64,000 bases of DNA, taken from the NCBI GenBank assembly GCA_951828385.1, contig OX639973.1, positions 5,509,200 through 5,573,199 of the forward strand, written 5' to 3'. Below the pieces are notes generated by a model. That model was not told where the DNA came from. It saw nothing but the letters and a program-made list of their open reading frames with translations, and did no database searches. The position numbers and the translations under genes are program-made. This DNA is from an uncultured Poribacteria bacterium. GTDB taxonomy: Bacteria; Poribacteria; WGA-4E; WGA-3G. This document shows positions 38,201 to 42,283 of this stretch, piece by piece; positions within the stretch are counted from its first letter, which is position 1; each line of letters opens with the position of its first letter.

Positions 38201-38371
38201 CCCTATGGACACGGTAGTAACGGCGAGACCGACGCTTGGGACGAACGTGAAAAGCAGGTTGTGCTACAGCATGCGGATGCACCACCGTGTCTTGAGTGCG
38301 GTGCACTTATGGTGAGAAGTGGTGTCTGCTATCGTTGCGCAAATTGTGGCGCGACAAGTGGATGTTCCTAA
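35234..38371 (+). CDS. nrdJ: Adenosylcobalamin-dependent (class II) ribonucleotide reductase
   Basis: 1045 aa. Makes deoxyribonucleotides using a B12-derived thiyl radical. Active-site motif N397-P-C399-S-E401; upstream FNSPVWFNCG and the glycine-rich GSGTGSNFSKV; also SVIAPTGTISFLMDCDTTGIEP. Residues about 685-760 carry HLSPTHYAVFDCA, then NGTRYINHMGPLKMMAAVQPF typical of the NrdJ family. The C-terminus has a cysteine zinc-ribbon (CLECGALMVRSGVCYRCANCG), the shuttle for reductant. ATG at 35234 is chosen because GAGAGG lies seven bases upstream; ATG at 35228 is one base from it. Implies a B12 requirement or supply. Confidence 0.96.
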   Translation: MAVDNPKEVDEGATSPKPPNGGDRTGLTFTPYFTTSGVHPYDLLEWERRDAVIYNEKGDVIFKQEQVEVPADWTQLATDIAASKYFRKAGVPEVEAEDSVRQLVTRVARTLRRAGEELGGYFATPEDAQTFEMELTHILVTQRGAFNSPVWFNCGLWHEYKIEGGGGNYYWDQDAEKVKVTTNAYQHPQNSACFIQSVDDSLDSMLELQKSEVRLFKYGSGTGSNFSKVRAKGELLSGGGESSGVLSFLEGFDRWAGSIKSGGTTRRAAKMVILDMDHPEIVDYIDWKLREEDKAKALIAAGYPADFNGEAYSTISGQNSNNSLRIPDDFMNAYLQGDSWKTTYRTSGDVADEYDARTLMEKIAYAAWACADPGVQFDSTIQKWHTCKNTGRINASNPCSEYLFLDDSACNLASINLAKFLRDDNTFDIDGFRAAVRVFATAMEIIVDLSSYPTENIAQRSHEYRPLGLGYANLGALLMRLGVPYDSEQACAYAGAITAILSGRGYQTSAEIAASVGTFAGYVKNSDAMLNVMRMHREAAYNIDPAVCPPELFEAAKADWDICVEKGEQSGYRNSQISVIAPTGTISFLMDCDTTGIEPEFALVKFKKLAGGGYMKIVNQSVRDALYNLDYTLQQTEAIITYLVGTGTFEGAPHINPDTLKRKGFRQEDIDRVAEMLPTAFDLNLAFAPGFLGAECLERLSITEEEAADPNFELLSAIGFSEDEISKAEEFICGTGTVEGAPHLSPTHYAVFDCAVQCGKNGTRYINHMGPLKMMAAVQPFISGAISKTVNVPHDATVDDIKTLYVEAWRRGVKCLAVYRDGSKGSQPLSTRSQQEAESETDEVVTDAPGERPIRKRLPDTRTSLTHKFSVGGHEGYIHVGFYEDGSPGEVFLRMSKEGTAVSGLMDSVAVLTSIALQYGVPLESLVNKFSHVRFEPSGFTADPDIPMAKSIIDYVFRWLGIRFLSQEPHGGSNALDFDEEMVPPEELHPYGHGSNGETDAWDEREKQVVLQHADAPPCLECGALMVRSGVCYRCANCGATSGCS

Positions 38372-38383
38372 GACTGTATATGC

Positions 38384-38437
38384 CAGAGTCATTCAAAAGC
38401 AAGAACGGAATAGCTTTGAATGGCTCTGTTTTTTTAT
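38384..38437 (+). terminator. Rho-independent terminator after nrdJ
   Basis: Stem CAGAGTCATTCAAAAGC / GCTTTGAATGGCTCTG (38384-38400 with 38413-38428; one mismatch and one bulge), 12-base loop, followed by a run of T. Confidence 0.85.
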
Positions 38438-38475
38438 TTTTTACGACTTGTCACCGTGAAAATCAAGGAGAAAGT

Positions 38476-38940
38476 ATGGAGGAAAAGACTTCGCAAAAAG
38501 TTTTCATCGCCCATGGGCACGACACGGAAGCCATAACAACTGTTGCTGAGTTCGTAGAGAACTTGGGTTTAAAGCCAACTGTTCTTGACGAACAGCCTGG
38601 CAACGATCCAACGGTTATTGAGAATCTCGAAAGATATGCAGACGACACAGGGTTTGCAATTGCCTTGTTAACCCCTGACGACGTTGGGGCATTAAAAGAT
38701 GAAGCAGACCGACAACTCAACCCCAGAGCCCGCCAGAACGTCATACTTGAACTTGGCTATTTCATTGGTAAACTGAACCCGCACCAAGTTTGCCTTCTTT
38801 ATAAAGAAGGTGTTGAATTACCATTGGGGATTCGGGACGTAACCTATGTGCCCATGGATAGTGCTGATGCTTGGAAACTGAAACTTCGTCAGGGCATGCG
38901 AAAGGCGGGATTGCCTGTTGATGTAAGTGATGTTTTGTAG
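38476..38940 (+). CDS. TIR-like NAD-binding protein (CAP12/Pycsar effector TIR type)
   Basis: 154 aa. Matches the predicted nucleotide-binding TIR family (PF10137): VFIAHGHDTEAI at the N-terminus, VLDEQPGNDPTVIENLERYA, AIALLTPDDVG, NPRARQNVILELGYFIGKL (the ELGYF glutamate is the candidate NADase residue) and VPMDSADAWKLKLRQGMRKAGL. Such domains act as NAD+-degrading effectors in CBASS, Pycsar and related antiphage systems. Here it stands alone, without an attached STING or cyclic-nucleotide sensor. The start at 38476 has AAGGAG five bases upstream. Relics of a second TIR gene and a DNA methyltransferase follow. Confidence 0.87.
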   Translation: MEEKTSQKVFIAHGHDTEAITTVAEFVENLGLKPTVLDEQPGNDPTVIENLERYADDTGFAIALLTPDDVGALKDEADRQLNPRARQNVILELGYFIGKLNPHQVCLLYKEGVELPLGIRDVTYVPMDSADAWKLKLRQGMRKAGLPVDVSDVL

Positions 38941-39667: not shown

Positions 39668-40020
39668 TTGAGTTGAGCAGATGGTCGCGTCCTGATTGTC
39701 GTATTGCCAGCAGGATGAGGAAAGTCCGGACTCCGTAGGGCAGGATGCTGGGTAACCCCCAGGAGCGGCGACGCTATGGAAAGTGCAACAGAAAGTAAAC
39801 TACAACGCCTCAAAACGTTGTACAGGTGAAACGGTGCGGTAAAAGCGCACCAGTCCATAAGGCGACTTATGGAGCTATGTAAACCCCATCTGGAGCAAGG
39901 TAAATCGGGGGCACATACAGGTTGCCCGCCTCGTCCCCAGGTAACCGCTTGAGGTGGATGGTAACATCCATCCCAGATGAATGATCATCACATACAGAAT
40001 CCGGCTTATTCTCAACTCAA
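39668..40020 (+). ncRNA. rnpB: RNase P RNA (bacterial type A)
   Basis: The catalytic RNA of RNase P, which matures tRNA 5' ends. Terminal P1 stem: TTGAGTTGAG at 39668-39677 pairs with CTCAACTCAA at 40011-40020. Conserved cores are present: GAGGAAAGTCCGGACTCC (from 39717), AGTGCAACAGAAA, GGTGAAACGGTGCGGTAA, and near the end ACAGAATCCGGCTTAT. About 353 nt, normal for type A. Transcribed from the promoter at 39630-39659. Confidence 0.95.
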
Positions 40021-40366
40021 GTTTTCAGTTTTGACGCTAAGCGGATGAATTTTGACGTTCATGTTCGGTAGGCTTAGGGGTACAAAACCCTACACCTTGG
40101 AAATCGTAGAGGTGTGGTCACCGCATCCATTGGATTGAGAGACCCAGCGGAAACTCCCTAGCAAAAACACCTCTACGCCTGCCATTACCGATTTTGTTTG
40201 TCAAATTTCATTAGGAGCCAGCTGTGCTCGCGATATTTACTTCCTATTTCAAATTTCCCCACTTTAAATGATAGAATTTTTCCTAAATCTTGTATTTTAT
40301 GCAACCTTTCTGTCATCAATTCCTATCTTAACGTTTTGAGAGACAACATATTTTAGGAGATGTTGC
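40021..40366. other. Region between rnpB and the sigma gene, with a structured segment
   Basis: No ORF of note. A perfect 11-bp inverted repeat, CGTAGAGGTGT (40105-40115) and ACACCTCTACG (40167-40177), encloses 51 bases that can form an inner GGTC/GACC stem with a TCCATTGGA hairpin. A TGCAAC (about 40301-40306) might be an ECF -35 for the downstream sigma gene, but the -10 does not match sites 1-3. Confidence 0.45.
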
Positions 40367-40987
40367 ATGAAAAATGATGACGTGCAATTGATTGAACGGA
40401 CGTTGGCGGGTGACGAGTCTGCGTTCAGCACACTTGTGCGGAAATACCAAAAACCGGTCCACGCGTTCGTACGCCGGAAAATCGGTGATTTCCACATTGC
40501 TGAAGAAATCACGCAAGATATATTCCTCAGAGTTTACGAAAAACTGCCGACCCTGAAAAACCTGAATACGTTTGCCGGATGGCTTTATGTGATTGCTGCT
40601 CGTCAGTGTTTCGCGTGGTTTGAAAAGAAGCGGATTCCGATGGAATCGTTAGATGCAATGTCGCCAGCGGAATTAGAAGAATTGGCTTATACGCGATACT
40701 GTGCTGAACAACAAAAAGAATTCGTGAGTGAACGCCAACGCGAAGTCGTCGAACGCCTCCTGCAAAAGTTGCCGGAGGGTGAACGGAGCGTTGTAACGCT
40801 TCATTATCTCAATAGTATGACATGCGAAGACGTTAGCAAGTTTTTGGGTGTATCACCGAACACCGTCAAGAGTCGGCTCCACCGCGCCCGCAAGCGGTTG
40901 AAGAGGGAGGAACCTACAATTCGCGAGATTTGGGGGGAGGCCAAAGGAGATTTTATCAGATTTCGGTGTCAAAACCCAATCCTTTAG
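40367..40987 (+). CDS. ECF RNA polymerase sigma factor, C-terminus altered
   Basis: 206 aa, strongly similar to the sigma half of the sigma-DnaN protein (MKNDDVQLIERTLAGDESAF versus MRSDDVKLIQRTLVGDEDAF). Region 2: DFHIAEEITQDIFLRV. Region 4: MTCEDVSKFLGVSPNTVKSR then RARKRLKREEP. The last residues (FIRFRCQNPIL) are encoded by the left hairpin of the element at 40975-41636, so the original C-terminus was probably lost by that insertion. Good ribosome site TAGGAG. The DNA-binding core is intact. Confidence 0.85.
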   Translation: MKNDDVQLIERTLAGDESAFSTLVRKYQKPVHAFVRRKIGDFHIAEEITQDIFLRVYEKLPTLKNLNTFAGWLYVIAARQCFAWFEKKRIPMESLDAMSPAELEELAYTRYCAEQQKEFVSERQREVVERLLQKLPEGERSVVTLHYLNSMTCEDVSKFLGVSPNTVKSRLHRARKRLKREEPTIREIWGEAKGDFIRFRCQNPIL

Positions 40988-40999
40988 GTTTGGGATGTT

Positions 41000-41084
41000 T
41001 GGGAAAATCGGGCTTTTGTTTGTGAAAGCCAAACAAAAGGTAACGTTCTGCGGGCTGAAACCCGCCAGAACCCCGATTTTCCCA
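41000..41084. other. Three-way-junction structure inside the element
   Basis: Outer stem of 13 bp (41000-41012 with 41072-41084, TGGGAAAATCGGG / CCCGATTTTCCCA) closes two hairpins: CTTTTGTTTG / CAAACAAAAG (41013-41022 with 41030-41039) and GTTCTGCGGG / CCCGCCAGAAC (41045-41054 with 41061-41071, one bulge). Both loops contain TGAAA. Confidence 0.8.
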
Positions 41085-41127
41085 CGACACCGCCTCTGTT
41101 AATTAGACCAAACCTCTGAAAATAAAT

Positions 41128-41156
41128 TTGACATTCAGTCTAAAATGTTGTATAAT
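41128..41156 (+). promoter_or_regulatory. Consensus sigma-70 promoter inside the element
   Basis: TTGACA (41128-41133), 17 bp, TATAAT (41151-41156): the best match to consensus in the window. No protein gene starts within 450 bp downstream. Confidence 0.85.
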
Positions 41157-41162
41157 ACTACG

Positions 41163-41241
41163 AATCACTGGTTGAGAGTTACAACGTCCGCACCTTGCGG
41201 AATGTTCTCAACCAACCTCTTTGTAACGAGGTAGAGTGATT
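41163..41241 (+). ncRNA. Candidate structured RNA beginning at the predicted +1
   Basis: AATCACT at the predicted start (41163-41169) pairs with AGTGATT (41235-41241), closing two hairpins: GGTTGAGA / TCTCAACC with an inner TCCGC/GCGGA stem, and ACCTC / GAGGT. The 3' strand AGTGA can alternatively pair with TCACT at about 41252-41256. The transcript probably extends further to the element's right end. A role as omega RNA or another regulatory RNA is inference. Confidence 0.5.
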
Positions 41242-41625
41242 GTGATTAATACTCACTGAAAACAACGCTTGTGAAATGGATTCTCTATACAACGCTGTCT
41301 GTCCGTGAGCGGGACAGAGGGTTTGATTGTATATCCCATAGTAGCCCTAAAATGCGTTAGGTTTGAAGCAAGAAATACTTGCCAAACGTATCGGTCGTCT
41401 CTGAAGGTTCAAGGATATTTCCGTAGTGTGCCCTATGCCTCGCACCTTGCAATTGTATGCATGTTGGTTCGGATTAAACCCGAACAAGCGATCAAAGCCT
41501 ACTTCGTAGGAAATAGGTCGTAAGAGAAGCCGCTACCGCAGAACGACAAATGGTCGTTGTGGTAGAAACCTAAAAGAACCGTTTGGGAGTTCCGTCAAAG
41601 GAATCCCAATCCTTTAGGTTTGGGA

Positions 41626-42168
41626 GGAGGTCAAATCCTAACAAGCATTGTATGTATCGTTTTATGTGTAGTTTCTATCGTTTTAATGTCGCACGACTAC
41701 CAACACCGAGAGAAACAGTCAAATGTGGCGCGTGGTATCTCCAGACCTCCACAACCCCTGAGCCTAATCGCGAAAGGGACAAATGAAGTCCGCCCAGTCA
41801 TCCCAAATTATCATCCCCGATATAACGTCATCGGACAGGTTTTCATGCGTTTTGGCGAAGAACGTCACATCTTTGAACTCTTTGAGACTCCGGACTTTGT
41901 CTGGGATTTCTCAAAAGCACTCAGAGGTTTCCACTATCTATCAACGTTCTCTCAATACGCGGTTATGAAAATGCTAAAAACGATCATTGATAGATTTCTA
42001 TTGCGTGAAAAACACACCTTGTTTTCAATACAAAATAGAATAAAATCGTCCATTAAATGGTTTTTTTATAGGTATTTCGTATTGATGTTATTAGGTTTAG
42101 AGGAATTAGAAAACTTTCACTCCTGTAAAATATATGTGCGTTTGTTTTCACGAAGCCAATGGCCATAG
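41626..42168 (+). pseudogene. 5'- and 3'-truncated ABC-2 permease relic
   Basis: The reading frame begins in the middle of a first membrane helix (ILTSIVCIVLCVVSIVLMSH, then DYQHREK and RPPQPLSLIAKG), the layout of the ABC-2 permeases elsewhere in the window. Similarity to that type appears to fade after FELFETPDFVWDF (about 41910). The remainder to 42168 has no recognisable domain. The natural start and first half-helix are missing at the junction with the element. Bases 42169-42283 hold no other feature. Confidence 0.55.
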
Positions 42169-42283
42169 GGGTAAAAAGTTTCATTTGCACTTATTTTTTA
42201 CATGAACCGAGCAATTGTGAGAAATCCCAGCAGGGTACAAACTCAAAGACTATCTGTATACCAACAAGTATAGTTGGTACTGG

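What the first reader, a model, noticed from the sequence alone, without database searches (positions are those of the whole stretch)
41128..41256. Strong promoter whose +1 starts a closed RNA domain with two alternative pairings
The first seven transcribed bases pair with 41235-41241 to close a two-hairpin domain, but AGTGA can instead pair with TCACT just downstream. Mutually exclusive stems at a 5' end are typical of switches or of processing control.
Basis: partly seen in the sequence, partly recalled or inferred. Interest (0 to 1): 0.6.

Follow-up and report, generated by a model that had tools for sequence, protein, structure and literature searches.

The report
Pseudoknotted RNA leader of TnpB transposons
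The promoter and folded RNA start belong to a small jumping element of a Poribacteria genome; the same knotted RNA, kept by matched mutations, sits in front of dozens of genes for RNA-guided DNA-cutting proteins (TnpB) and a few other genes, where it probably controls their translation, and no catalogue we could search lists it.

Summary
The region is the 5' part of a non-coding IS200/IS605-type element (40957-41634) inserted in a sigma-factor gene. The same promoter and leader precede 38 of 54 tnpB genes in this genome (0 of 8 that have tnpA) and hundreds of loci across one Poribacteria genus. In 103 aligned leaders 97.5% of 3277 pair cells are canonical, with 529 two-sided changes; 97 of 103 form all seven pseudoknot pairs although its core is hypervariable. 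The leader matches no Rfam family. None of 91 such genes has a Shine-Dalgarno-like motif. Leaders without transposon ends precede a conserved chromosomal gene and a phage gene. Most likely function: control of translation initiation (inferred). The window copy has no tnpB; there it heads a non-coding transcript.

The parts
40957..41634 (+). whole non-coding IS200/IS605-type element (left end to right end), inserted in the 3' part of an ECF sigma-factor gene
   Evidence: several relatives match the window up to 40956 and again from 41635, with about 1.16-1.3 kb of native sequence between
40964..41092 (+). left end: outer stem CGGTGTC/GACACCG around the hairpin CCCAATCCTTTAGGTTTGGGA, interrupted here by an inserted palindromic segment of about 87 bp (40999-41085)
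   Evidence: recurs before the same promoter in other copies without the insert; inverted repeat I2
41128..41156 (+). sigma-70 promoter TTGACA-17-TATAAT
   Evidence: sequence; 91 of 100 homologous leaders have at most 2 mismatches in the 12 promoter positions, against 10 of 2000 shuffles
41163..41169 (+). P1 5' strand 'a' (AATCACT), starting at the predicted +1
   Evidence: pairs with 41235-41241; covaries in homologues
41170..41213 (+). P2 (41170-41177 with 41206-41213) enclosing P3 (41187-41192 with 41196-41201)
   Evidence: covariation
41178..41184 (+). pseudoknot 5' strand GTTACAA, a bulge between P2 and P3
   Evidence: complementary to 41221-41227; the 7-bp pseudoknot is complete in 97 of 103 homologues
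41215..41232 (+). P4 hairpin ACCTC/GAGGT whose loop holds the pseudoknot 3' strand TTGTAAC 41221-41227
41235..41241 (+). P1 3' strand a'1 (AGTGATT)
41242..41247 (+). a'2 (GTGATT), partial second copy of the P1 3' strand; in tnpB-bearing homologues it lies directly before the start codon
   Evidence: covaries with 'a' in 103 homologues
41242..41256 (+). P5 hairpin GTGA-ttaatac-TCAC, compatible with P1; the non-coding siblings L060 and L061 have ATGG-loop-CCAT here
   Evidence: MFE; sequences
41257..41600 (+). non-coding body between leader and right end; no tnpB reading frame
   Evidence: all three frames interrupted; stretches shared with L061 and L062
41541..41634 (+). omega-RNA-like 3' part and right-end hairpin (CCCAATCCTTTAGGTTTGGGAGGAGGTCAA)
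   Evidence: sub-threshold Rfam HgcC match, E 0.00079, 26.9 bits against a gathering score of 50

Best explanation
The region is the promoter and 5' leader RNA of a family of small, tnpA-less IS200/IS605-type (IS1341-like) elements that fills one Poribacteria genus, seen here in a non-coding member of 678 bp. Shown by sequence: a near-consensus promoter precedes an RNA of about 100 nt that can fold as P1 (its first 7 nt with a'1), P2, a 7-nt bulge, P3 and P4, where the bulge pairs with the P4 loop (pseudoknot PK). In coding members a'1 is repeated as a'2 in the place where a Shine-Dalgarno sequence would lie, just before the tnpB start codon, and the 5' strand can pair with either copy. Inferred: the leader controls translation initiation of the gene behind it. 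With a:a'1 the start region is free; with a:a'2 it is shut; the pseudoknotted core sets the balance, alone or by binding something (TnpB, its guide RNA, a ribosomal component or a small molecule). In the window copy tnpB is gone, so the leader is only the folded 5' module of a non-coding transcript that could run into the omega-RNA-like right end.
For: Recurrence of left end, promoter and leader in the own genome. 54 tnpB genes, 38 with the leader; none of the 8 with an adjacent tnpA has it (Fisher p = 1.2e-5). 119 of 129 leaders have tnpB behind them, with the start codon at one fixed distance in 86 of 100. Covariation: 16 sequences, 98.2% of cells paired, 22 of 32 pairs with two-sided changes; 103 sequences, 97.5%, 28 of 32 pairs, 529 cells with two-sided changes against 139 in shuffles and 41-67 in slid controls. 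a:a'2 covaries as P1 does (91.9% paired, 90 cells with two-sided changes against 24 in shuffles). In L102 the two copies are separated by extra bases, a'2 contains the start codon and is still a perfect copy. No SD-like motif before 91 of 91 leader-borne starts, against 18 of 38 control ORFs with one. All 26 sampled genomes of the genus carry 2-47 copies. Element borders by comparison with relatives.
Against: No RNA or protein data exist for any copy; promoter use, +1, fold and translation effect are all predictions. The window's own copy is too divergent for the covariance model built from tnpB leaders (no match at E up to 1); its membership rests on shared flanks, DNA similarity and the same helices. 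The non-coding copies keep P1 and mostly PK without a gene to translate, so translation cannot be the only role. The a'1/a'2 repeat could partly be kept by replication slippage. The SD control used first ATGs, not proven starts.
Confidence: 0.55

Rival explanations
1. The leader is a structural or protein-binding 5' module of the whole transcript (stabiliser, processing signal or TnpB/omega-RNA handle), not a translation switch; a'2 is incidental.
For: Non-coding families keep P1, P2 and PK without tnpB, and in most of them a'2 is replaced by a hairpin.
Against: a:a'2 covariation in coding copies, its survival at a different spacing in L102, and the absence of SD motifs tie the leader to the start codon.
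Confidence: 0.25
2. The leader is a riboswitch-like or factor-sensing cis-regulatory RNA of the host lineage that selfish genes (tnpB, a phage gene) have picked up.
For: Leaders without a transposon left end precede a chromosomal small-membrane-protein gene in several genomes, with compensated PK changes, two other small membrane/coiled-coil genes (L142/L271, L190) and a phage gene (L231).
Against: The large majority of copies are in tnpB elements; no ligand-binding pocket of conserved unpaired bases was shown; the downstream genes share no obvious pathway. Not exclusive of the best explanation.
Confidence: 0.25
3. The arms matter as DNA (TnpA recognition, replication hairpins) and the RNA fold is a by-product; paired changes come from quasi-palindrome correction.
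For: IS200/IS605 ends are recognised as DNA hairpins (established for the family, from own knowledge); PK changes fast in a coordinated way.
Against: The pairing starts at the predicted +1, lies away from both element ends, is found without transposon ends, and forms a pseudoknot between a bulge and a loop rather than a simple palindrome.
Confidence: 0.07
4. The fold and its alternative stem are chance features of one intergenic region.
For: Only that the window copy is not found by model R1.
Against: z -5.2 and massive covariation in homologues, including the window's own sub-family.
Confidence: 0.01

Closest known systems
IS200 tnpA 5' leader / 5'tnpA RNA of Salmonella (PMC12594629)
   Same: structured 5' end of an IS200-group transposon transcript; there a stem-loop sequesters the ribosome-binding site and limits transposase translation
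   Different: that is a stem-loop before tnpA; here a P1-P4 pseudoknotted domain before tnpB (or no gene), with a duplicated P1 strand; no sequence relation was tested
TnpB omega RNA / reRNA (e.g. PMC8612924, PMC10278001, PMC11061315)
   Same: same kind of element; the window's right end has an omega-RNA-like hairpin
   Different: omega RNAs derive from the 3' end of the element; this RNA is at the 5' end
HgcC RNA (Rfam RF00062)
   Same: weak match to the right end
   Different: below the gathering score, and concerns the 3' part, not the leader
Riboswitches with kissing-loop or pseudoknot cores
   Same: 5' leader, compact pseudoknotted core closed by a stem that can exchange partners near the start codon
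   Different: no ligand known; no match to any Rfam family in the window or in 20 homologous loci; PK core hypervariable

Membership tests
IS200/IS605 element (tnpA-less, IS1341-like) | subterminal hairpins at left and right ends, no terminal inverted repeats, insertion next to a short T-rich motif | tested here: met
   CCCAATCCTTTAGGTTTGGGA hairpin at both ends; left flank TTTTAT; borders from relatives
IS200/IS605 element (tnpA-less, IS1341-like) | tnpB gene | tested here: not met
   absent in the window copy; present in 38 leader-bearing copies of the genome, so this copy is a non-coding derivative
Any Rfam family (release 15) | match at gathering score over the leader | tested here: not met
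   none in the window or in 20 homologous loci
Riboswitch | 5' leader with conserved structure and alternative pairing near the start codon | tested here: met
   in tnpB-bearing homologues:
Riboswitch | specific ligand that changes structure and expression | not testable with these tools
   needs probing and expression assays
TnpB omega RNA | 3'-terminal scaffold followed by guide at the right end | tested here: inconclusive
   only the window's right end resembles it; the leader itself is 5' terminal
IS200 tnpA-type leader | Shine-Dalgarno sequence sequestered in a stem | tested here: not met
   no SD-like motif in -18 to -4 in 91 of 91 leader-borne starts

The most novel reading that the evidence does not exclude
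A new class of cis-regulatory RNA of Poribacteria, whose pseudoknot core diversifies copy by copy while keeping complementarity, governs SD-less translation by choosing between two copies of the P1 strand, and is shared between selfish RNA-guided nuclease genes, a phage gene and a vertically kept chromosomal gene. The fast PK turnover (57% of core positions differ between leaders that are under 5% different elsewhere) would then mark each copy with its own identity and prevent cross-pairing between copies.
Probability: 0.25. Interest if true: 0.85.

Novelty: new variant of a known kind. Interest (0 to 1): 0.65.

Why it matters
How tnpB expression is set in tnpA-less elements is little described in the papers found. 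A pseudoknotted, strongly covarying leader in dozens of copies per genome offers a ready test system, and its presence before chromosomal and phage genes suggests traffic of a regulatory RNA between hosts and selfish genes. The hypervariable but always matched pseudoknot asks for an explanation of its own.

Tried and rejected
Rfam at gathering and permissive thresholds gave nothing for the leader. The idea that the 41305-41523 ORF or the body is a tnpB remnant was dropped: no frame and no similarity to tnpB coding sequence. A regular-expression search for leaders gave too much noise and was replaced by scored extraction and a covariance model. Pattern matches outside Poribacteria in genome contigs (L121, L127, L133, L147, L151, L184, L196, L199) lack P2 and give no model match: chance. 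The same pattern in viral contigs led to one contig with real leaders; two further patterns added nothing. Literature searches turned up no description of such a leader; the library holds open-licence papers only, and only hit lists and abstracts were scanned, so absence there is weak evidence.

Full report
Place. The window is G000:C1:5509200-5573199 of a 6.66-Mb single-contig genome. Its genus mates G038, G046 and G020 have the lengths of Poribacteria assemblies OX639992.1, OY282374.1 and OX638316.1, and the real homologous leaders found in named genomes are in Poribacteria.

Observation. The promoter TTGACA (41128-41133), 17 nt, TATAAT (41151-41156) is perfect. The predicted +1 (41163) opens AATCACT, which pairs with AGTGATT 41235-41241. 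The 94-nt domain folds far better than shuffles (z -5.2, 0 of 200). Inside lie P2 (41170-41177/41206-41213), P3 (41187-41192/41196-41201) and P4 (41215-41219/41228-41232).

Element. A DNA search of the own genome returned the promoter-leader segment and the CCCAATCCTTTAGGTTTGGGA hairpin as repeated units, and reading the copies showed the order left-end hairpin, promoter, leader, tnpB start. The right end at 41602-41634 repeats the hairpin and gives a sub-threshold HgcC match. Several relatives have the uninterrupted sigma-factor gene: their similarity to the window stops at 40956 and resumes at 41635, with 1.16-1.3 kb of native sequence missing in the window. The sigma-like ORF of the relatives is 560 aa; in the window it ends in the element after 206 aa. 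The window element has no tnpB frame. L061 and L062 are complete siblings of the same non-coding kind.

Leader family. PF07282 gives 54 TnpB genes above the cut-off in this genome. A covariance model from 16 leaders finds 40 leaders; 38 of the 54 tnpB have one upstream, none of the 8 tnpB with an adjacent tnpA does (Fisher p = 1.2e-5). Of 58 genomes of the phylum, all 26 of the genus have leaders (2-47 copies each), 5 of 16 others of the family have 1-3, and beyond the family there is one marginal match. Other lineages with more diverged versions are not excluded.

Covariation. A2 (16 leaders): 98.2% of 510 cells paired, 22 of 32 pairs with two-sided changes, PK 100% paired. A3 (103 leaders, aligned to a model without PK or a'2): 97.5% of 3277 cells, 28 of 32 pairs, 529 two-sided cells against 139 in shuffles. 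Part of A3 was found with a pattern that fixed P4 bases but left PK free. 97 of 103 form all seven PK pairs with 51 different PK 5' strands. Among leader pairs under 5% different elsewhere, PK core positions differ in 57%, like the unpaired spacer (47%) and linker (54%), while P2 and P1 differ in 1%. This rate is descriptive; no tree-based test was made. In the window's own sub-family (window, L060, L061, L062, L244, L253) P1 and P2 hold in all six sequences and PK in five.

Two copies of the P1 strand. In tnpB leaders a'1 and a'2 are adjacent; 'a' forms at least 6 of 7 pairs with a'1 in 96 of 103 and with a'2 in 89 of 103. The a:a'2 helix covaries on its own. In the commonest type a'1 carries a mismatch (CTTGAGA) and a'2 is perfect (CTTGATA). 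In L102 the copies are separated and a'2 includes the start codon. No SD-like motif lies in -18 to -4 of 91 leader-borne starts; 18 of 38 long window ORFs have one at their first ATG. The a:a'2 pairing thus covers the initiation region; that it represses translation is inference.

Outside transposons. Own-genome leader C1:3817252-3817354 has no left end and precedes a small membrane/coiled-coil protein gene; the pair recurs in other genomes of the genus, with PK changed and compensated (A5: 95.6% paired, 11 two-sided cells against 3.4 in shuffles). L142/L271 and L190 precede other small membrane/coiled-coil genes, L231 a phage gene whose repeated DGTHxFL motif recalls NUMOD3 (from memory; Pfam gave no match). 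The phage record G070 holds three leaders.

Mechanism and alternatives. Best supported is a 5' leader that governs initiation at the gene behind it by exchange of P1 partners. Against a purely translational role stands the survival of P1/P2/PK in two non-coding families (window type; L068/L070/L072 type). A general transcript module and a host regulatory RNA taken up by selfish genes remain open.

Known relatives. The nearest known kind is the IS200 tnpA leader, whose stem-loop hides the ribosome-binding site (PMC12594629). No Rfam family and no paper found describes this leader; the literature check was by hit lists and abstracts in an open-licence library only.

Noticed in passing
window 40999-41085: An inserted palindromic segment (inverted repeat I2, TGGGAAAATCGGGCTTTTG...CAGAACCCCGATTTTCCCA) splits the left-end outer stem of this copy; other copies read GGGATGTAGACACCG without it.
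   Followed up: partly
window 41901-42200: A second repeat family: copies 84-95% identical elsewhere in this and other genomes of the genus, several in one genome.
   Followed up: no
window 40367-40987: ECF sigma-factor gene truncated by the element; relatives have a 560-aa protein with a long C-terminal extension.
   Followed up: partly
L068, L070, L072 (own genome): A second non-coding element family: left end, promoter, leader with another P1/PK, about 350 nt of conserved structured-looking sequence, right-end hairpin; could be a free-standing guide-RNA cassette.
   Followed up: no
L261:440-515 (own genome C1:3817139-3817213): A 75-bp palindromic repeat with many near-identical copies in most genomes of the genus.
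   Followed up: no
window 38296-38940: ORF with sequence like TIR-like nucleotide-binding effector proteins (VFIAHGHDTEAI...), next to a ribonucleotide reductase-like ORF; judged by eye only.
   Followed up: no
window 39669-40023: RNase P RNA class A, full length.
   Followed up: no
L142, L190, L261, L271: Leaders before small membrane/coiled-coil protein genes of unknown function, without transposon ends.
   Followed up: partly
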